Part shown: piece by piece, positions 8,694 through 29,068 of the stretch
How the letters are laid out: the number at the start of each line of letters is the position of its first letter
Position numbering within the stretch: the first letter of the stretch is position 1
Source of the DNA: Armatimonadota bacterium
GTDB lineage: Bacteria > Armatimonadota > HRBIN16
Direction: 5' to 3'
DNA length: 64,000 nt
Assembly (NCBI GenBank): GCA_026003175.1
Contig: BPGT01000007.1
Coordinates: forward strand, 1-64,000
Notes under the pieces: model-generated
What the model saw: the letters and a program-made list of their open reading frames with translations, nothing else
Told to the model about the DNA's origin: nothing
Databases searched by the model: none
Made by a program: the position numbers and the translations under genes

Positions 8694-9982
8694 TGCGAGC
8701 ATACTCCGCTTTGCTCAGGCGCAAGATGTTTGACTGGTCATTTCATCCTGCGGTGCGATGGGGAGTGTCTGCAGCATTGTACATCCGCTACCTGTTGCAC
8801 GGAGACGGTGCAAGCCCCAGGGGTTTCCCTTACCTGCTGAGTGCACACCGCTACGTGGCAGGTAAACTTGGCAGCCGCACTTACGAGAAGCAGATAGTCA
8901 AGTGGTTACCCGGATGGCTACAGCATAACTTGCCTGCAAGACAGTATCCTCTGCCTGAAGGTAAGATGCGCTCCTTTCGTGCGCGTACTTTAGTGCTCAA
9001 ACCGCCTCGTCGCGAGAGCGATACCGTAGTGGAGCGGGGCGTCCTTCTTACCAAAACCTTCTGGGAACTGGTTGTGTTGACCGATGTAGAGAGGTTGCTC
9101 CGCGATTACTGGCTGGTGATTGAGCCGGGCTGGTCAGGGTATGCAGATGCGCATTTACTGTACTACTGCCGTTTCCCATACCCCGTGATTGTCTGTTCAC
9201 CAGAGATCACCGACTACCAGTTCCTGCAACATCTGCGCACGAACCTGATACCTGTCCATATCGGCGCTAGCGATTGGGCGCACCCCGAGATTTTCCATCC
9301 TGTCGAAGGCATCGAGAAGGTGTATGACGCGGTAATGGTTGCTGGATGGGCTGTCTATAAGAGACACCATGCCCTTTTTCGCGCTCTGAAGCACCTGCGC
9401 CGCACCGATATCAAGGTCGCCATAGTGGGGTTCGAGTGGGAAGGTAACCGCGAGGAGATCGAAATGCTGATTGACCTTTACGGGGTGCGCAAACATCTGG
9501 ATATTTATCAAAGCCTGCCCCCACCGGAGGTGAACAGAATATTGAATCAGAGCAAGGTAAACCTGATTCTGACCTTACGCGAAGGTGCGAACAAGAGCAT
9601 TTTTGAGGGTTTCTTTGCAGATGTGCCCGGCATTGTGTTGCGCAACAATATCGGCATCAACAAAAGCCATATCAACGAGTATACCGGCAGGCTGATCGAC
9701 GAGCGCGAACTACCGCAGGTGCTCCTGTGGTTTCGCGATCACCACAGGGATTTCCGACCACGTGAGTGGGCGATGCAGAATATCTCTCCGCCAGCTACTA
9801 CCGCGAAGCTGAACGCTATCTTGCGGGAGATCGCTTGCGAACATGGCGAGCCGTGGACACGTGATATCGTCGCAAAAAGCAACTGTCCGAACCCGACATA
9901 TTATCCAGACGCTTCGGTGGCTGTCGGTTTCCCTAATGTGGATGATCTTCTCGCACAGTATGGTCGCAGCGTGAAGCAATGA
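8693..9982 (+). CDS. Divergent GT4-like glycosyltransferase
   Basis: This 429-aa protein is probably a glycosyltransferase. The C-terminal half has the GT-B layout: MVAGWAVYKRHHALFRAL, KVAIVGFEWEGN, DIYQSLPPPEVNRILNQSKV, then NKSIFEGFFADVPGIVLRNN in the position of the usual E-x7-E loop. The N-terminal half is not recognisable. The ATG at 8693 overlaps the epimerase stop and has AAGGAG 8 bases upstream; a longer GTG start 21 bases earlier is less likely. Its last 4 bases overlap the deacetylase gene. Confidence 0.75.
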   Translation: MRAYSALLRRKMFDWSFHPAVRWGVSAALYIRYLLHGDGASPRGFPYLLSAHRYVAGKLGSRTYEKQIVKWLPGWLQHNLPARQYPLPEGKMRSFRARTLVLKPPRRESDTVVERGVLLTKTFWELVVLTDVERLLRDYWLVIEPGWSGYADAHLLYYCRFPYPVIVCSPEITDYQFLQHLRTNLIPVHIGASDWAHPEIFHPVEGIEKVYDAVMVAGWAVYKRHHALFRALKHLRRTDIKVAIVGFEWEGNREEIEMLIDLYGVRKHLDIYQSLPPPEVNRILNQSKVNLILTLREGANKSIFEGFFADVPGIVLRNNIGINKSHINEYTGRLIDERELPQVLLWFRDHHRDFRPREWAMQNISPPATTAKLNAILREIACEHGEPWTRDIVAKSNCPNPTYYPDASVAVGFPNVDDLLAQYGRSVKQ

Positions 9983-10995
9983 CTACAATGTTGAAACATT
10001 TTGTCAAGAGCCTGGTTGCCCTGAGGGTGTACCGGGCCTGCGGTGAAAGCTTGTGGGAGAAGCAGCGAGGAATCCTTATCCTCATGTACCAAGAGGTGGC
10101 GTCAAAGCGTGACGAGCGCTTTCGCCTGTTTCCGGTATTGTGCACGACGCCCGAAACTTTCCGCCAGCAGATAGAGTGGCTGCAGAAGCGTTGGGAAGTC
10201 ATCAGTATAGATGACGTGGAGGGACGGCTGCGCGAGGGTACCGCTGGTGACAGTCGGGCGGTGGTCATCACCAGCGACGATGGCTGGGCGGGCTTCTACA
10301 CGGAAGCGATGTCTTTAGGGATCCAGGCGACCGTATATGTCACTACCTGCGTGCTGGAGGGGCGGTTGCCCTGGTACGTTCGGTGGCGCTTGCTGCTGAA
10401 GGAGAACCCGTTCCTGTTGAAACCTCTGGCACATGAACTGGGAGATTTTGAACCGTTCCCCAACGCAGACACCGCTGTGGACAGACTGAAGAGGCTGGAC
10501 ATCGCGCGGATAGAGTGGTTGTGGGAGAGTATGGCAAAGGAGTCTGGCTTTCGAGAAGAAAGGTTGCCCACGGACTGGTTCATGAGCCGCGAGCAGGTGC
10601 GGCAAACGACATCGGGCGCAATCACGATAGGATCGCATACGGTGCACCATCCGTTGCTCACCCACGAACGTTCGGAAGTCGCGCTGGACGAGCTGAGGGA
10701 GAGCAAAAGGGTGCTGGAGGGCCTGACCGGACAACCGGTGAGGCACTTTGCCTATCCGAACGGCGACCACGATGACAGGATCGCTGCGCTGGTAGCGGAG
10801 GCAGGATACGCTACCGCGGCCACCACTCAGTCGGGCTGGAACCTTCCGGGTGAGCATCTTTATCGCTTGAAGCGGGTGGACGTGCATGAGGCGGCGTGTG
10901 TAGACCATCGTGGGCGTTTCAGCGAGGCGATGTTCGCGCTGTGGATCACTGGCGAATGGATGCGGGTGAAGAGCAAGTTGAGGTTTCTCTCATGA
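9979..10995 (+). CDS. Polysaccharide deacetylase (NodB/CE4-like)
   Basis: This 338-aa protein would remove N- or O-acetyl groups from a glycan. NodB motifs are present: VITSDDGW (motif 1; the usual T/F-F/D-DDG with Ser), IGSHTVHHPLL (motif 2, metal-binding His pair), and HFAYPNGDHDD (motif 3, Arg replaced by Asn). There is no signal peptide, so it may act on a cytoplasmic lipid-linked intermediate. It starts with a 4-base overlap with the upstream glycosyltransferase and overlaps the downstream one by ATGA, placing it inside one translationally coupled set. Confidence 0.88.
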   Translation: MTTMLKHFVKSLVALRVYRACGESLWEKQRGILILMYQEVASKRDERFRLFPVLCTTPETFRQQIEWLQKRWEVISIDDVEGRLREGTAGDSRAVVITSDDGWAGFYTEAMSLGIQATVYVTTCVLEGRLPWYVRWRLLLKENPFLLKPLAHELGDFEPFPNADTAVDRLKRLDIARIEWLWESMAKESGFREERLPTDWFMSREQVRQTTSGAITIGSHTVHHPLLTHERSEVALDELRESKRVLEGLTGQPVRHFAYPNGDHDDRIAALVAEAGYATAATTQSGWNLPGEHLYRLKRVDVHEAACVDHRGRFSEAMFALWITGEWMRVKSKLRFLS

Positions 10996-12245
10996 CCTCA
11001 CGCATCGGCTTCATCCATTTCGGCACATACCCCGATATCCGCGTGGTGAAGATGACCGACACGCTGGCGAAGGCGGGCTTCGAGGTCATCCTGCTGGCGC
11101 GCAACATCAAGGGGGTGAATGAGCCGGGCGCAGCGCATCCCTACGCGCATCTGCTGGGACAGAAGGGTGAGGAGTGGAGAAGCCGACTGCAGATCCGCCG
11201 CCTTCTGGATGACACACCCGAAAGGTGGCGTGGTGCCCTGACACTGCCGTACCACGTCAACCCGATATGGCGCAGGGCGATACGCGATCTGGTGGTGAAG
11301 GATGGCTGTCAGCTGCTTATCGTGCGCGACATGCCACTGGTGCTGGCAGCGACAACGGTAGGCAGAAGATACGGAGTGCCAGTGATTTTCGATATGGCAG
11401 AGAACTACCCGGCGGTGATGGCGGTGTGGCGCCGCTGGGAGGGGCGCAAGCGGGCGGTGGTGAACTTTTTTGTCCGCAACATCACGCTGGCGCGTATGGT
11501 GGAAAGAGCGGGTATCCGTGCCGCCGAGCAGATATTCGTGGTGGTTCCAGAACATGTGGAGCGCGTGGCGCAACTGCGAGGAACAGCCAGCGGCATCGAG
11601 GTCCTTGAGAACACGCCTGTGCTGGAGGAACTGGATGCACTTTATACCTGCTATGCCAGCCGCCCCGAGTGGCAGCCTGCATCACAGGGGATGGAGGTTG
11701 TGTATGGGGGGAATGTGCATTTCTATCGGGGTATTGATACGCTGATCGAAGCAGCAGCCCTGCTGAGGCACAGGCAGGTGCATGAGATACGCTGGACGGT
11801 TGTGGGTACGGGTAAGGTGATGAACAGGCTGCAGAAGCTGGCGGAGGAAAAGGGGATTGCAGATAGTGTGTGCTTCATGGGCTGGCAGCCAGACCTGATG
11901 GCTTTCGTGTATCGGGCACACGTGGGCTACGATGGTTCACACGCTTCAGAGCATACGCATAACACGATGCCCAACAAGCTATATGACTACATGGCGTTCC
12001 GTAAGCCGGTACTGGTATCCGATTGTCGCCCGATGAAGCGAGTGGTGGAAACTTATCAATGCGGTCTTGTCTTTCGCTCGCAGGATGCCGAAGATTTAGC
12101 GGAGAAGGTAATGATGCTGCGTGACCCTGACCTGCGCGCCCAGATGGGCGCAAACGGACGCAGGGCAGTGGAGGAGCGCTACCACTGGGGCGTGGATGGG
12201 AAAAGGCTGGTGGAAGTGGTGCAACAAATGCTGAGCCGGGTATGA
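10992..12245 (+). CDS. GT4-type glycosyltransferase
   Basis: This 417-aa GT-B enzyme has an N-terminal domain with GTYPDIRVVKMTDTLAKAGF. The C-terminal donor domain has VVYGGNVHFYRGIDTLIEAA, WTVVGTGKVMNRLQKLAEE, VCFMGWQPD, and MPNKLYDYMAFRKPVLVSD, as in glycosyltransferases that replace the canonical E-x7-E by an NK-Y-E/D-Y motif. The start is the ATG of the ATGA overlap with the deacetylase; an in-frame start 96 bases earlier lies deep inside that gene. It is the last intact gene of the cluster. Confidence 0.88.
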   Translation: MTSRIGFIHFGTYPDIRVVKMTDTLAKAGFEVILLARNIKGVNEPGAAHPYAHLLGQKGEEWRSRLQIRRLLDDTPERWRGALTLPYHVNPIWRRAIRDLVVKDGCQLLIVRDMPLVLAATTVGRRYGVPVIFDMAENYPAVMAVWRRWEGRKRAVVNFFVRNITLARMVERAGIRAAEQIFVVVPEHVERVAQLRGTASGIEVLENTPVLEELDALYTCYASRPEWQPASQGMEVVYGGNVHFYRGIDTLIEAAALLRHRQVHEIRWTVVGTGKVMNRLQKLAEEKGIADSVCFMGWQPDLMAFVYRAHVGYDGSHASEHTHNTMPNKLYDYMAFRKPVLVSDCRPMKRVVETYQCGLVFRSQDAEDLAEKVMMLRDPDLRAQMGANGRRAVEERYHWGVDGKRLVEVVQQMLSRV

Positions 12246-12257
12246 GCAGGAAGTTCC

Positions 12258-13060
12258 ATGGGAACAGGTTCTAGATCGGCGGTTTGGGGCTTCGGGATAC
12301 TCTGTTTTCTGGTATCACTGGCGTATACTGGCTATGATTCTATTGCAGACAATCGCGCTGTGTCTCTGGCAGTAGTGGAGTGGCTGCGCGATCCTACCCT
12401 TTACCCCTCCGATCCTATCCGTGAGACGTTTCCCCGTTACGTCTCCGTCTACGTTTGCCCCAGCGGGCAAACGGGCTATGGGTGCGGCAACGATTTCTGA
12501 TGGCTGCGCTGGGGCTGGTGCTTGTGGTGGGGTTTGCTCGGCAGGTTCAGACAGAAGGCATACGTTGGCGGTTAGCTTGCGAATCGCCGCAGTATCCGTT
12601 CGCACAGTGGGCTTTGCGGAACACCTCCAAGGATGCCGTCTTTCTTGTGCCGCCAGGCTTGCAAGAGGACTGGCAGAGCTTTCGCGCCATCTCCCGACGA
12701 GGGGTGTTCGTCACGTGGAAGGACGGCACGCATGTGCTCTTTGACCCTCGTTACACGGAAGAATGGGTAGATCGTATCGCTGAGATCGGCTTCGACATCC
12801 GCCAGCATGTTCTGGGACTCCGGGGGCGCTCCCCAGTGGATGGGGAAAACATCAACAAATTGTATTTCAAACTGCAAGACAGTGACGTGCTGCGCATCGC
12901 TGCTCGATATCGGGTGGACTACTGGATCGTGCCCGTGGATAAACCTTCTCACTTCCACGAGGTGTTTCGGCATGGTCAGTGGAAGGTGCTTCAGGTAAGA
13001 ACTCCTGCGGAGAGAGGAACTACCCCCACATCCCAGCCCAAACGCGACAGCCACAGGTGA
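12258..13060 (+). pseudogene. Internally deleted membrane protein (DUF6798-like remnant)
   Basis: Two pieces of what seems to be one larger gene lie in different frames. The first (12258-12500) has a real ribosome binding site and begins a membrane-protein N-terminus (VWGFGILCFLVSLAYTGYDS) followed by EWLRDPTLYPSDPIRETF. The second (from about 12455 to 13060) starts in a transmembrane helix (FLMAALGLVLVVGFA) and ends in a soluble domain with DAVFLVPPGLQEDWQSFR and SRRGVFVTWKDG, which I associate with DUF6798-type C-termini. The multi-helix middle is absent, with the junction near 12440-12500. Family members usually have several hundred residues between these parts. The 3' end overlaps the convergent gene by 70 bases. 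Confidence 0.55.
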
Positions 13061-13908
13061 TAGTCCGACTCGCGCAGCTCCTCCGGGGACGCGCCGCTGA
13101 GGGCGACAATCACCGCTTCCAGCACGTTGGTGGCGAAGGTTTCACCCCCGAAGACGGGGGTGGTGGTGAGTAGCAGGTCTGCTCCTCGCTCGCGCAGGAA
13201 GTCGATGTCCGACTGTCGCACAGTATTGGTCAGCACGACCTTGCCCCTGAGGTTCTGGGGAGCGTAGCGACGGATGTAGTGCCAGTCGCCGGCAATCACG
13301 TCTGCCCAGCGGAAGTAGCGTTCCCAACGAGGCGTGTTGCGCTCTTGTTTCTCACCGGTGGGATACACCCAGTCAAACGGCAGGCGAACGACGATGGGTA
13401 GCACCACTCGCGCCAGCCTCGCCAGCGTATGAATGTTGCGGATGGGCAGGGGTACTCCCAGCGCGAAGAGGGCGTCACCGAAGACGATGGCTTTGGCTCG
13501 CTCCGCCAGCGCCTCCGCCATGCCGAACCGGTCCAGCGCGCTGACCAGCAGCACGTTCTGCTCGCTCCAGTCCAGGATGTTCTTCTGCTCGATGCGTTCC
13601 ACCGCCCAGCGTTCTAACGTGTTCTTCAGTCCGCTCCCATCGACGACAGGGGTGTGTTGGACATGCGCAATCAGCCTTTGTACGTCGCGGAAGGTGTATC
13701 GCCGTCCCTGCGCCCAGAGGTACAGGTCGCATCCGCCCAGACCGATGGCGTCTACTTTACCGTCCAGCTCCGCAAGCAGCTGGCGGAAACGACCTTTATC
13801 TCCATCGGTGCCACGTCGCTCAATGCGAAAGGGCACGCCGAGTATCTCGGTCTCGGCGACTTTATCCCGTTTGCTCGAACCTAAACTGGCGGAGACGACG
13901 TGTTTCAA
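12991..13908 (-). CDS. Conserved protein of the family annotated quinate 5-dehydrogenase
   Basis: This 305-aa protein has a characteristic N-terminus SASLGSSKRDK, then ILGVPFRIERRGTDGD and KVDAIGLGGCDLYL. I recognise this from Deinococcus/Thermus and Firmicutes proteins that databases label quinate 5-dehydrogenase; the biochemical basis for that name is weak. A late segment PVFGGETFATNVLEAVIVAL is also conserved. The start is TTG, because no ATG precedes the conserved N-terminus; GAGGT lies about 10 bases upstream, inside the end of the PIN-domain remnant, 2 bases from its stop. The two probably share the promoter near 14161-14189. Confidence 0.7.
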   Translation of the reverse strand: MKHVVSASLGSSKRDKVAETEILGVPFRIERRGTDGDKGRFRQLLAELDGKVDAIGLGGCDLYLWAQGRRYTFRDVQRLIAHVQHTPVVDGSGLKNTLERWAVERIEQKNILDWSEQNVLLVSALDRFGMAEALAERAKAIVFGDALFALGVPLPIRNIHTLARLARVVLPIVVRLPFDWVYPTGEKQERNTPRWERYFRWADVIAGDWHYIRRYAPQNLRGKVVLTNTVRQSDIDFLRERGADLLLTTTPVFGGETFATNVLEAVIVALSGASPEELRESDYHLWLSRLGWDVGVVPLSAGVLT

Positions 13909-13910
13909 TG

Positions 13911-14126
13911 TTATGTGACCTCGCTAGGGTGTAGCCTTCTGAGAGGGGTTTGGTCAAAGTCGCGGTCGAAGCTGACCAGCTGCTGCCCGAATCTTTCCGC
14001 AGCTACGTAGTGGTATGCGTCATCGAAGTCTAAAGAATACTGGGTCATCACCACAATAATACGATCACTTTCTAGCCAAACATTAGTATCCAGTAGAAAA
14101 CGAATTTTGTCTGTGATAGTCTGCAC
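13911..14126 (-). pseudogene. PIN-domain (VapC-like) gene with internal deletion
   Basis: The 71-aa reading frame begins IRFLLDTNVWLES, the typical first strand and first metal-binding Asp of a PIN RNase. It then jumps to SLDFDDAYHYVAAERFGQQ and LVSFDRDFDQTPLRRLHP, the C-terminal part with the last acidic residues. PIN toxins normally have about 130-150 residues, so roughly 60 central residues (including the second acidic site) are missing. The start is GTG at 14126 with GGAGGTGG upstream. It is probably non-functional as a nuclease. No antitoxin gene is adjacent, yet its promoter and an operator-like palindrome remain. Confidence 0.6.
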
Positions 14127-21875: not shown

Positions 21876-24156
21876 TCAGGAGGTCTTCTCCAGGGCAAAC
21901 GAAGCCTGCTCGTGGTAGTCGTAGGAGTCTATCCTTGCGCTACCCGTGAAGTGCTTCGCCCGCACGTGCAGGTACACCGAGAACGTACATCGCTGGTGCG
22001 TGGTGGGGAAGCCGGGCCACGCTCCCAGTAGCTGTCCTATCGTCATGGTGCTGGACGCCTGAGGGGCAGCGGGCGGTTCGCCTGCGTCTGCTGTACCGGA
22101 TGCGAACGTGCCTCCGGGACCATTCAGCCCGCGCCGCCATGTCAGCGAGTAGGACATCATGAACGTATTGTTCGGGTTGGACACACCACGTGAGTGGTAT
22201 GCGCGGAAGCCTACCGAAACATCGGTCCCCTCCGGTCCGCTAATGAATTGGCACTCCTCGCTACTGGGAATACCGTTGCGCCGGATGTCCACGATGTCGC
22301 CTTGCACGGGGCTGTTGTCTATCCAGAACACGCTGACTACATCGGCGAAGGGCACATTGTCGGTGGAATTGGGGTCGCCCTGTCGCCAACGGCGAAACTG
22401 GAAGTTGCGAGCGGTACCCGGCTCGCTGGCTGGAGCGGAGATGGGCTTGATACGGTTGCCCGACGCGTCGAACAACTCCAGAATCAACAGGTATCGCCCT
22501 GGGTTAAACAGGGTGGTGTTCCACACCTGATGATATTGTCCACTCAGCCAGTAGTTGCCACTACTCCAGTAAGGTATTCGCACCAGACCTACCTGTCCCC
22601 CCACATCCATCGGGTTTGCGGAGAGGGCTTCGGAGGCTACCTTCCACTCGCCACCCACAAGCACAAAACGGTTCCACGCCACCGGCGCGTCGAGAACGGT
22701 TACCCCACCGACTGGCGAACCACTGCTGTCGACGCGCACCACCGACAGGCGGTAATACTTCGCAACGGGTTCCATCTCCGGCGAAATCCACAGCCGAATG
22801 CCTAATGAGCCTCCCCACGGACAGTCAGGCGCATAGGAAGTGGTGAACGTGCCGGAGCTGGCTCCAAGCGCGCCGGTTCGCGATAGTCCATTTTGGGAGG
22901 GGAAGTTGAAATGGCGCGAGCCGGGGCTGCCGATATACTCTACCATCGCGAAGGGCATCCCCTCGGCGGGCGGGGGGGTCTCCTGGACCGGAGCCACAAA
23001 CCAGCGCGCGCCAGTCCCACGTGCGGATGTCCGCCGATTCCCCTTCGGCGAACCAGTTATGCGAGGCCACCCCGTCGTATACGGTTAGCCAGTTGCCCTG
23101 AATACGCTGGCGCACCTTGAAGGCGAAGGTGGTATGACAGGTTACACCTGGTCGGGTTATCCTTCGCGGGCGCAGGTAACAGAAATCGAACCTGCCGCCC
23201 GGCTGCAGAGGAGTTTCGCCCACCTTGTGCATGGAACAGGTGCAAATCAACTCCAGCAGATAGGGGCGGGCGAGCACATATTCCTCCGCCTGCTGCATGT
23301 TCATGCTGGTAAGGGCGATATAGTCGGCGTACAATCGCTCGGCGGGCATCGTGGTAACCTCTGCCAGCACGTTCGCCAGTCGTTTGCGCAAGTCAGCGGT
23401 TTGGGCACGAATGCCTGGCTGTACCTGCGGACGCACTGTCTGGCGAATCGCTGCCAGCTCCAGTCTCTGCGTCAATCTGCCGAGGTGGTCTACTACGAAC
23501 GGAGCAGGGTCGGGTCCGGGACCGGGTGGGTCAGGCAGGGGGATGGGGATAACCTCCAGTATCTCCCGCAAGCGATCGAGCAGGTCTGGCAGACGTATAC
23601 GGAAGCAGCAACATACCCGCTCGTAAATCTCCACAATACCATCGCACAGAGGCAGACAATGCGCCGGGATGAGAGTGTGCAGCTCTGGACGGTGCGTCAG
23701 GCTTTTCATTGCCACATTGCGCGACAGATTCAGCCCGGAAACGAGGTCCAACCTGTCCACAATATCCCACCACCAAGGACGGCATTTACGGGCGGTGCCG
23801 CTGACGCACACAAACTCGAAGTGAAATCGCTCCCAGATGTCGCGCCCAAGTATCAGTCCGCGTTCTCGCCAGACGGGAAAGGTGGCATCTGGACGAAAGG
23901 TCACGAGGCTCTCATCGGTAAGCTGGGTGAGGTCGGTTACGTCGGGTCCCAGTGCGATGGCGGGCAGTTGCGTCCACTCCGCCTGCACATCCAGGCGGTC
24001 TTTTTCGACGCGGGCGAGCTTCCTCACCGGTTTGCCTGCTGTGTCTACCTCGTAGACGGCGATCGCCGGTGCGGTTTCGCCATGCTCCAGCCCAGCGAGC
24101 TGCACTCGCGCGCTGAAGACAGGCTTCGTGCGTTGCGTTTCCTGTCCTTCCTTCAT
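21876..24156 (-). CDS. Unrecognised cysteine-rich protein, one apparent frameshift
   Basis: This is a ~759-aa protein after repair. The N-terminal part (24156 to ~22980) contains cysteine clusters (FVCVSGTARKC, HCLPLCDG, YERVCCCFRIRL, LICTCSMHK, CYLRPRR) and a Pro-rich linker PIPLPDPPGPGPDP near its middle. The C-terminal part (~22980 to 21876) looks beta-rich and extracellular-like, with PWGGSLGIRLWISPE and NFNPGRYLLILELF-like strands. The frame changes between ~23010 and 22972; removing one base of the seven-G run 22972-22978 joins the parts as GDPPPAEGMPF and makes the length a multiple of three. The start at 24156 has AAGGAG. No signal peptide is obvious. It lies 84 bases after a sigma factor gene. 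I do not recognise a family. Confidence 0.65.
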
Positions 24157-24240
24157 GTGAGTCGTCTCCTTCCCGAGCAAAGATTAGGGTGGCTACATGG
24201 CTACCCTGTTAGAAATACTTGCATTTTGTGCGGTTTCTGG

Positions 24241-24840
24241 TCACCAGCTCATATTCTGATCCGCCAGAACTTTTTGTAGTTTGCGCTTGATGCGTGCAAG
24301 GCGTTTATGTACTGCGGTTTTGCTGAGGTTCAGTCGCTGGGCGATTTCCCGTTCGGTCAATCCGTCTCGGCACCACCAGCACATTAGCTCGCGCTCCGAT
24401 TCGGGAAGCGACAACAGCAAGAGTTGCAAATCGCTGTCGTTTTCGCATTGCTCGAAAGGGGTTCGCCATTCGGGGTCTATCAGTTCAACTGGTTCGCCTG
24501 TGATTGCGTCTTGTGGTATGGGCGCCATGCTGATGCTCCATCGCCATGCAAGACGGTGTTCCTGGCGAATCGCCTGCACCGCTTTGAAGAAGGCGTGGAC
24601 AGGGAAAGAAACGTTGGCATCGTGCCTGTAGGAAAGGCAAGCCTCCCATACCGCGACCCACGCGATAGACTCTCGCTCTTCGTCCCAGTAGGCAGTTTCA
24701 TAGCCAGGCGGCGTTTTCCAGTGTCGCGTCCGGTGCATGGCATGTCGCACAATCTGTTCCAGCTGGGGAAGCATCCGGGCATACTCCCGTTCCTCCTCGC
24801 CTCGCGGCTGAGGTAAACGGTCCTGTGGAGATTTTTTCAT
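24241..24840 (-). CDS. Sigma-70-family RNA polymerase sigma factor
   Basis: This 199-aa protein would direct RNA polymerase to a specific promoter set. Residues ~50-100 resemble region 2 (IAWVAVWEACLSYRHDANVSF, then HAFFKAVQAIRQEHR). The C-terminal helix-turn-helix of region 4 is clear: LPESERELMCWWCRDGLTER followed by EIAQRLNLSKTAVHKRLARI. The size fits an ECF-like or alternative sigma factor. The ATG at 24840 is preceded by GGAGGAGG. The next gene on the same strand is the unrecognised cysteine-rich protein, a likely target or partner. No anti-sigma factor is seen nearby. Confidence 0.85.
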   Translation of the reverse strand: MKKSPQDRLPQPRGEEEREYARMLPQLEQIVRHAMHRTRHWKTPPGYETAYWDEERESIAWVAVWEACLSYRHDANVSFPVHAFFKAVQAIRQEHRLAWRWSISMAPIPQDAITGEPVELIDPEWRTPFEQCENDSDLQLLLLSLPESERELMCWWCRDGLTEREIAQRLNLSKTAVHKRLARIKRKLQKVLADQNMSW

Positions 24841-24927
24841 GGCTCTCCTCCTCCATGCTAAGATACGCAAAATGTTGGGGAATCACCTGCCTGTCGTGAG
24901 AAAATACGCGCCAGGGTGCTCGGGAAT

Positions 24928-27037: not shown

Positions 27038-29068
27038 CTAAATCTCCTCCAGATACATTTCCGTTCCCTGCGTGATACGTTCCAGCCATCCGCCCGAAGG
27101 GTCCACCAGCGGTATCCACCAGAAAGTAGGGCGGTGGTCGGTGTGTGTTAGCCCTTCGGAGACCAGGATCGCCTGGCGCACCAGCTCCATCTTGCGCAGT
27201 TCCGCTTGGCGTTCTATCTCCATCGCGCGCTGGCGAGCACGCTGGTTCTGCTCCCCACGTTCCAACATCTGGCGTTGAGGTTTCAGCCGGGCGACCTCCG
27301 CCCGCGCTTCGGCAATCCACTCTCGTCGCTGCTGTAATTCGCGGTCAAAGCTCTTGCGAGCCTCCTCGTACTGCGAAATCTCGTCGCGAATGCGCTCCAC
27401 CTCGATGCCAGAGGTCACCCCGCGTTGCGCCAGCTCCCACAACCGCTCCTTGAGGGGCTTGATGGTCTGCCGATAGTTTTCGCCTTTTGCCATCTCAATC
27501 CTCTGGTACTCCTGTTTCCACTGCTCTATTTGCGCATAAAGGGCGTGAATGCGCTGGTGGATTTGCTCTGCCTGCCCGCGCAGTTCGCGCAGGGTGGCGA
27601 TATGTGTGTCGTACTCCTCGCGCAGGAGATGCCAGCCCCCGCCTTCGCGTTGCGCTAGAAAATCCAGCACCTCACGCGGGCTGGTGATCTGGCGGATAGC
27701 TTCCAGCAACGCCTTTTGCTCGACAACTACCTCCCGCCAGCGAGCGGAGAATTCGGACGTGCATATCTCGCGCTTTCCGAAGGCAGCTGCCAGGTGGTCT
27801 GGCAGGGTGATAGTTTCGCAGTCGGTGCTGCCGAGTGTATCCCAGGTGGGGTAGACCAGGCGCAGGATGGGGTGCACGCTCCATTCCACGCCATGCTCGC
27901 GAAGATACTGGTTCATCTTGCGGGTACGCCATACGTAGGGTGAACCGCCCTCATTCATCACGAACAGGAACTCCCGCGCCAGCATCGACACCAGCGCCAC
28001 CGCCTTGCCTACCAGTGTGGCTCCCGGCAAATGTGCTTGCACAACCTGCGCCAAATCCGCCACCGAGTGAACCGGTTTTTGCAGCGAGATGGTCACTGGC
28101 TCCTCCGTTTCCACCACCAGCCAGCGTTCGGCGATGCGCAGGGTACCTCGCCCCCTTTTGGGGATGATGAGGTCAAAGGGGATGGCTCCTTCGCCGAATC
28201 GGTCCAGCGTGTAGATTTCGGAGTCTGCCACCGCCTGATTGTAGGCGGCTTCGGCAATGGGGCGGGTTTGAGGGTTCAGGAAGATGTTCACCAGCTGGAA
28301 GCGGGGCAGGGTAGCGGTTTCGGGGGTCAGCTTCAACAGGTTTGCCGAGCAGTTGGTGTTGATATTATCGGTAGGTGCGCCCATCATGGCGAAGAATCGT
28401 GGGAACAACCACTGGTACAGCGCGCTCAAACATTGATTGGGGTGTTGTTTAGCGAAGTCGCTTACCCATCCCAGTATCCTGTCTGCCACTACCGAGCGTG
28501 CTTGCTGACGCTTGTGCGCAGGCAGCAGGTCCAGACTTTGCTCGAAACCCCATTGCAATAGCTCCATCAAAGGCTCCAGCACATGTTGCAGGCAAACCTC
28601 GTGCACAATCACCGAGTGGAGCTCGGTATGCACTAATCCGCGCCAGCCCCACGCCTCGGTCATGCGGTCGATGAACTGTTGCTCGCCGTCGGGGTGCCAC
28701 TTCGCCACCTTGTCAAAAGCGACGCCAGCGTTTACGTAACGCTGGCGGGTAGGGATGGTCTCGCTACCGAACAGACAGGACAGCTCGCCAGCGGCGGACC
28801 ATAGGTCGCGCGTAGTGCCGTCGTTGTGTGGCAGCGCGACGATGGGGCGGTCAGTCTGGACAGGGCGCGAGAGTTTTGCGAAATAGTCGGTGCAGTGCAC
28901 GCACAGTAGGAACTGAAAGTGGATGCCCACCTCGCGTGCCAGACGGTTCAAGACCGCTTTCATCGGCTCGTCCCAGAAAACGGTCTGTCCCAGAGCGAGG
29001 AGGGTGGTATGGGGATAACGTTCCTGCAGTTCAGATAACACTTTCGGAACAGACGGATGCATAGTCAT
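27038..29068 (-). CDS. Unrecognised 676-aa protein with C-terminal coiled coil
   Basis: I do not recognise the family. The first ~430 residues look like a globular cytoplasmic domain. It starts LLALGQTVFWDEPMKAVLNR, which resembles a nucleotide/sugar-binding or deacetylase-like opening, and contains VALPHNDGTTRDLW and GWRGLVHTELHSVIVHEVCL. From about residue 470 to 640 it is a long charged coiled coil (LREEYDTHIATLRELRGQAE, ERIRDEISQYEEARKSFDRE, QMLERGEQNQRARQRAMEIE). No membrane segment or signal peptide is seen. It begins the operon with rfaE2, asparaginase and cyclophilin, from a strong promoter at 29128-29157. The bunshin-like BshC idea (globular plus coiled coil) was considered, but no motif supports it. 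Confidence 0.7.
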   Translation of the reverse strand: MTMHPSVPKVLSELQERYPHTTLLALGQTVFWDEPMKAVLNRLAREVGIHFQFLLCVHCTDYFAKLSRPVQTDRPIVALPHNDGTTRDLWSAAGELSCLFGSETIPTRQRYVNAGVAFDKVAKWHPDGEQQFIDRMTEAWGWRGLVHTELHSVIVHEVCLQHVLEPLMELLQWGFEQSLDLLPAHKRQQARSVVADRILGWVSDFAKQHPNQCLSALYQWLFPRFFAMMGAPTDNINTNCSANLLKLTPETATLPRFQLVNIFLNPQTRPIAEAAYNQAVADSEIYTLDRFGEGAIPFDLIIPKRGRGTLRIAERWLVVETEEPVTISLQKPVHSVADLAQVVQAHLPGATLVGKAVALVSMLAREFLFVMNEGGSPYVWRTRKMNQYLREHGVEWSVHPILRLVYPTWDTLGSTDCETITLPDHLAAAFGKREICTSEFSARWREVVVEQKALLEAIRQITSPREVLDFLAQREGGGWHLLREEYDTHIATLRELRGQAEQIHQRIHALYAQIEQWKQEYQRIEMAKGENYRQTIKPLKERLWELAQRGVTSGIEVERIRDEISQYEEARKSFDRELQQRREWIAEARAEVARLKPQRQMLERGEQNQRARQRAMEIERQAELRKMELVRQAILVSEGLTHTDHRPTFWWIPLVDPSGGWLERITQGTEMYLEEI

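What the first reader, a model, noticed from the sequence alone, without database searches (positions are those of the whole stretch)
21876..24840. Sigma factor followed by a cysteine-rich protein of no known family
A lone sigma-70-family factor is followed, 84 bases later, by a ~759-aa protein with several Cys clusters (for example YERVCCCFRIRL), a Pro-rich linker and a beta-rich C-terminal half. There is no anti-sigma gene. The pair looks like a dedicated regulatory and effector unit; the protein could be a redox or metal sensor, or a structural product of the regulon.
Basis: partly seen in the sequence, partly recalled or inferred. Interest (0 to 1): 0.6.

Follow-up and report, generated by a model that had tools for sequence, protein, structure and literature searches.

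The report
Lone sigma factor beside orphan protein
A hot-spring bacterium carries a small gene-switch protein (sigma factor) directly next to a large cysteine-rich protein from a rare, unnamed family; relatives gain or lose the two together, which suggests the switch is dedicated to that one protein, whose job is unknown but which looks like a structural chain of beta-sheet domains.

Summary
On the minus strand a lone sigma-70-type factor (24840-24241) is followed after exactly 84 bp by a 759-aa Cys-rich protein, split here by one frameshift in a 7-base C run. Four same-genus genomes (HRBIN16, Armatimonadota) have the intact gene, and no anti-sigma gene adjoins it.

The protein matches nothing in Pfam, NCBIfam, PHROGs, PADLOC or PDB sequences. 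It is not unique, though. Full-length homologues at 41-48% identity, with the N-half cysteines conserved, occur sporadically in Pseudomonadota and Planctomycetota, without a sigma neighbour.

Within the genus the pair is all-or-none: both in five genomes, neither in five, and one of the latter keeps a scar of the deleted protein gene. The 84-bp spacer is far more conserved than fourfold sites and occurs once per genome, only in pair carriers. The sigma belongs to a small subfamily spread over the phylum, often beside PEP-CTERM or prepilin genes.

Best reading: a dedicated sigma driving one acquired, leaderless protein, structural or binding rather than a sensor. The structure looks like a transthyretin-like plus Ig-like beta-sandwich string, at low confidence. 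Control by the sigma is inferred. The redox/metal-sensor idea has no direct support.

The parts
24241..24840 (-). lone sigma-70-type (region 2 + region 4) factor, 199 aa; member of an Armatimonadota subfamily with motif W.TPP.W...W.EE and R.EWR
24861..24889 (-). conserved element upstream of sigma (CAGGTnATnCCC N4 ATTTTGCGTATnT), promoter-like; found only here in three of the genomes
   Evidence: function inferred
24157..24240 (-). 84-bp spacer between sigma stop and the Cys-protein ATG, 87-88% identical to three relatives versus 56-66% at fourfold sites; probable promoter/leader with a short hairpin
24191..24222 (-). core element GCAAGTATTTnTnACAGGGTAGCCnnGTAGCC, one copy per genome and only in pair-carrying genomes
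21876..24156 (-). Cys-rich multi-domain protein gene (759 aa when the frameshift is read through)
22998..24156 (-). N-terminal half (386 aa): first beta domain (res. ~10-110), then Cys-rich transthyretin-like beta-sandwich interrupted by a helical/Pro-rich insert; eleven Cys invariant among the nine aligned N-half sequences
23359..23550 (-). Pro-rich, predicted disordered linker (res. ~203-266)
22972..22978 (-). C7 run where the reading frame shifts; relatives are intact
21876..22979 (-). C-terminal half: beta-sandwich domains, shared with the C-terminus of a CARDB-domain protein in another Armatimonadota genome

Best explanation
A small, anti-sigma-less sigma factor of an Armatimonadota subfamily is wired to one adjacent gene. 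That gene encodes a leaderless 759-aa chain of beta-sandwich domains with about a dozen conserved cysteines, probably acquired horizontally. The sigma would switch the gene on from the conserved 84-bp spacer. The protein would act as a structural or binding product, its cysteines stabilising the transthyretin-like domain by metal or disulfides, and not as a signal sensor. Shown: gene order, joint presence and loss, spacer conservation, purifying selection, the wide homologues, the conserved Cys. Inferred: transcription of the gene by this sigma, the structural role, the role of the Cys, the horizontal origin.
For: The sigma orthologue (58-75% identity) is in exactly the five genomes that have the protein (G000-G003, G007). 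In the other five, sigma matches of useful length are at most 33% identical. G004 keeps a 118-codon C-terminal remnant of the protein gene and no sigma. The spacer is 87-88% identical to three relatives versus 56-66% at fourfold sites, and its core occurs once per genome, only in carriers. dN/dS of the protein is 0.05-0.12. Eleven N-half Cys are invariant across the nine aligned sequences, and twelve are shared by 11 or more of 13 homologues. Distribution is patchy across phyla. Related sigma-subfamily loci lie near PEP-CTERM/prepilin genes at 12 of 26, against 3 of 20 control stretches (p=0.026). Full-length fold hits are beta-sandwich chains such as Cpe0147, RbmA and complement; N-half hits are transthyretin and CnaB, best E about 0.3.
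Against: Joint loss could be one deletion of two unrelated neighbours. The sigma's own upstream element does not significantly resemble the spacer element (p 0.12-0.22), so there is no sign of one shared promoter type. Homologues elsewhere do without the sigma. The sigma evolves faster than its neighbours (dN/dS 0.15-0.24). Structure models are weak (pLDDT 61 and 70) and fold hits are marginal.
Confidence: 0.5

Rival explanations
1. The two genes are neighbours by descent only: the sigma runs a regulon elsewhere and the Cys protein is transcribed by the housekeeping sigma.
For: No sigma is next to the homologues in other phyla. The spacer and sigma-upstream elements are not significantly alike. 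A single deletion would explain joint loss in G004.
Against: All-or-none pattern in ten genomes. Spacer conservation far above fourfold sites, and single occurrence per genome.
Confidence: 0.3
2. The Cys protein is a redox or metal sensor that regulates the sigma, acting as a soluble anti-sigma.
For: Conserved Cys clusters (C117, C125, C167, C171, C182-184, C305, C307, C326, C340 in window numbering); adjacency; no other anti-sigma.
Against: No zinc-anti-sigma hit in Pfam or NCBIfam. The same Cys are kept where no sigma is adjacent. At 759 aa with mostly structural-looking beta domains it is unlike known anti-sigmas.
Confidence: 0.08
3. The protein belongs with peptidases, as a substrate, inhibitor or partner in a processing or conflict system.
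For: Some homologues sit beside leaderless peptidases: subtilases in L041 and L042, an astacin/matrixin-like peptidase in L026.
Against: No peptidase beside the gene in HRBIN16. Only three of the homologue loci show it. No defence-library hit for the protein.
Confidence: 0.12

Closest known systems
ECF-type sigma factors without a cognate anti-sigma factor (reviewed in PMC8999054)
   Same: Small sigma with regions 2 and 4, no anti-sigma gene, possibly controlled at its own transcription, one of the mechanisms the review lists
   Different: Region 2 is so diverged that Pfam misses it in the window member; subfamily motif W.TPP.W...W.EE; not assigned to an ECF group here
Transthyretin-like / CarboxypepD_reg / CnaB beta-sandwich domains
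   Same: Best PDB fold matches of the Cys-rich half
   Different: No Pfam hit; E about 0.3; ~120-residue helical and Pro-rich insert; eleven or twelve conserved Cys
C-terminal half of a CARDB-domain protein in another Armatimonadota genome (L018:8013-9710)
   Same: C-terminal half, hhalign probability 98.3%, E 2.3e-14
   Different: Its N-terminus looks like a secretion signal plus CARDB, with no Cys-rich half
Ig/FNIII-chain surface proteins such as Cpe0147 and RbmA
   Same: Foldseek hits to the full-length model
   Different: Very low TM-scores; no signal peptide recognised by eye; no sequence similarity

Membership tests
sigma-70 family, ECF-like | region 4 helix-turn-helix | tested here: met
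   Pfam PF08281 6.8e-9; 9 of 9 subfamily members
sigma-70 family, ECF-like | region 2 | tested here: inconclusive
   PF04542 hits 6 of 9 subfamily members (best 2.5e-6) but not the window member; TIGR02937 covers residues 68-202 of the window member
ECF sigma with anti-sigma partner | adjacent anti-sigma gene | tested here: not met
   no such gene among the flanking genes
Zinc anti-sigma (ZAS) | ZAS profile match in the Cys protein | tested here: not met
   no Pfam or NCBIfam family hit
CarboxypepD_reg / transthyretin-like domain | profile match | tested here: not met
   no such Pfam hit for the window protein or any homologue
CarboxypepD_reg / transthyretin-like domain | fold | tested here: inconclusive
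   transthyretin tops the PDB list at E about 0.3
Secreted surface protein | signal peptide or sorting signal | tested here: not met
   no hydrophobic leader or PEP-CTERM in the sequence, read by eye; no predictor was available
Unnamed 12-Cys beta-sandwich family (Ramlibacter, Polymorphobacter, Planctomycetota) | full-length alignment with the conserved Cys | tested here: met
   41-48% identity over the full length; twelve N-half Cys each present in at least 11 of 13 homologues

The most novel reading that the evidence does not exclude
Armatimonadota use a family of miniature sigma factors, each hard-wired to one or a few neighbouring surface-type genes ('one sigma, one product'), and this locus has coupled such a switch to a horizontally acquired 12-Cys protein of an undescribed family.
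Probability: 0.25. Interest if true: 0.6.

Novelty: new variant of a known kind. Interest (0 to 1): 0.42.

Why it matters
The locus gives a clean case in which one sigma may serve one gene, with natural presence/absence controls in a single genus. It also defines a cross-phylum protein family that no library searched here names. If the phylum-wide sigma subfamily really is tied to surface proteins, it would be a simple, testable way of diversifying cell-surface expression in poorly studied bacteria.

Tried and rejected
Phage and plasmid tblastn and five viral-contig scans found no relative, so there is no evidence for a phage or plasmid element. Pfam, NCBIfam, PHROGs, PADLOC and PDB-sequence searches gave nothing for the protein. 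A common promoter motif shared by the sigma and Cys upstream regions was tested and is not significant. A conserved neighbour shared by all homologues was sought; only peptidases recur, in three loci. Full-length and N-half structure models were too weak to assign metal or disulfide sites.

Full report
WHERE IT IS. The window lies in a genome of 4.1 Mb in 7 contigs. Its same-genus relatives include 'Bacterium HR16' (HRbin16) and other Armatimonadota MAGs. The class-level clade HRBIN16 is known from neutral hot springs (PMC9671151).

OBSERVATION. On the minus strand, a sigma-70-type factor (24840-24241) is followed by an 84-bp spacer and then by a Cys-rich protein gene (24156-21876). The protein is in two frames, joined at a C7 run at 22972-22978. 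Four relatives in the same genus carry one open frame at the same place, with the same flanks (GH1 on one side; cyclophilin, asparaginase and a cytidylyltransferase on the other). dN/dS is 0.05-0.08 for the C half, 0.08-0.12 for the N half and 0.15-0.24 for the sigma. The low value for the C half, which lies beyond the break, means the break is recent or a sequence error.

THE PAIR. A search of ten genomes of the genus finds the orthologous sigma at 58-75% identity in exactly the five genomes that have the protein. Elsewhere only distant paralogues are found (33% identity or less over most of their length, higher only in short region-4 matches). G004 lacks both, but keeps a 118-codon, ~90% identical remnant of the protein's C-terminus at the same locus, a deletion scar. 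G006 and G008 are incomplete (89% and 80%), so their absences are weaker evidence.

THE SPACER. Over 84 bp the window is 87-88% identical to three relatives and 72% to the fourth. At fourfold sites of the N half the corresponding values are 66, 56, 57 and 47%. Its core element, searched with up to three mismatches, occurs once in each of the five carriers and in none of the other five; a reversed control pattern gives none. The segment upstream of the sigma has its own conserved element. The two elements are not significantly alike. That the sigma reads the spacer is therefore an inference.

THE PROTEIN FAMILY. No library searched names it. A scan of public genomes found full-length homologues in a Betaproteobacterium, Ramlibacter, Polymorphobacter (two records, one of them with a broken C-terminus) and a planctomycete. 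Genome searches added more in the families of Polymorphobacter (4 of 150 genomes) and Ramlibacter (3 of 151), and distant ones in Planctomycetota (2 of 392). The far group matches by profile at 99.9% probability over 650 columns. Eleven Cys of the N half are invariant in the nine N-half sequences aligned (C117, C125, C167, C171, C182-184, C305, C307, C326, C340). A twelfth, just past the end of the window's N fragment, is shared by 12 of 13 homologues. The C half also occurs at the end of a CARDB protein in another Armatimonadota genome. The tree separates groups by lineage with long branches. With the patchy distribution this suggests horizontal transfer, which was not formally tested.

NEIGHBOURS ELSEWHERE. 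None of the homologue loci examined has a sigma next to it. L026 has a sigma-like ORF about 4.8 kb away, on the other strand. Peptidases adjoin in three loci.

STRUCTURE. The full-length model has pLDDT 61 and is beta-rich. Its PDB matches are Ig/FNIII-type chains at low TM-score. The N half reaches pLDDT 70. Its top matches are transthyretin and CnaB, not significant at E about 0.3. No signal peptide is visible by eye.

THE SIGMA SUBFAMILY. The sigma shares the motif W.TPP.W...W.EE and R.EWR with paralogues. Full-length members occur in several families of the phylum. Of 26 such loci, 12 have a PEP-CTERM or prepilin signature within 3.5 kb, against 3 of 20 control stretches from the same genomes (Fisher p=0.026). 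Two of the three control hits are loose VEP matches that do not look like true PEP-CTERM. Some sigma loci are orthologues of each other, so the effective number is smaller. The control positions were picked by hand. The pair described here is thus one instance of an apparent habit: a lone small sigma beside a surface-type or structural product.

VERDICT. A dedicated unit is likely but unproven. The protein belongs to a real, rare, unnamed family. The sensor idea is not supported.

Noticed in passing
L073, L074, L076, L077, L078, L110-L128: A small sigma subfamily (motif W.TPP.W...W.EE) recurs across Armatimonadota, often beside PEP-CTERM or prepilin genes (12 of 26 versus 3 of 20 controls).
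   Followed up: partly
L042:7110-13110: Distant family member sits between a leaderless subtilase and a 460-aa protein of no Pfam or NCBIfam family, an apparent three-gene set.
   Followed up: partly
L018:8013-9710 (G266): CARDB-domain protein whose C-terminal ~350 aa match the C half of the Cys protein: a domain shared between different architectures.
   Followed up: partly
window 27038-29068 (-): 676-aa protein with no Pfam match above its cut-off, conserved at 81-93% in the relatives; weak matches are to coiled-coil families.
   Followed up: no
L013 (G004:C1) 9255-9602: Scar of the pair: a 118-codon C-terminal remnant, still ~90% identical and in frame, left after deletion of the sigma and most of the protein gene.
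   Followed up: yes
L009, upstream of sigma, 10834-13972: About 3 kb separate the sigma from the cyclophilin gene in G003, against ~0.2 kb in the window; content not examined.
   Followed up: no
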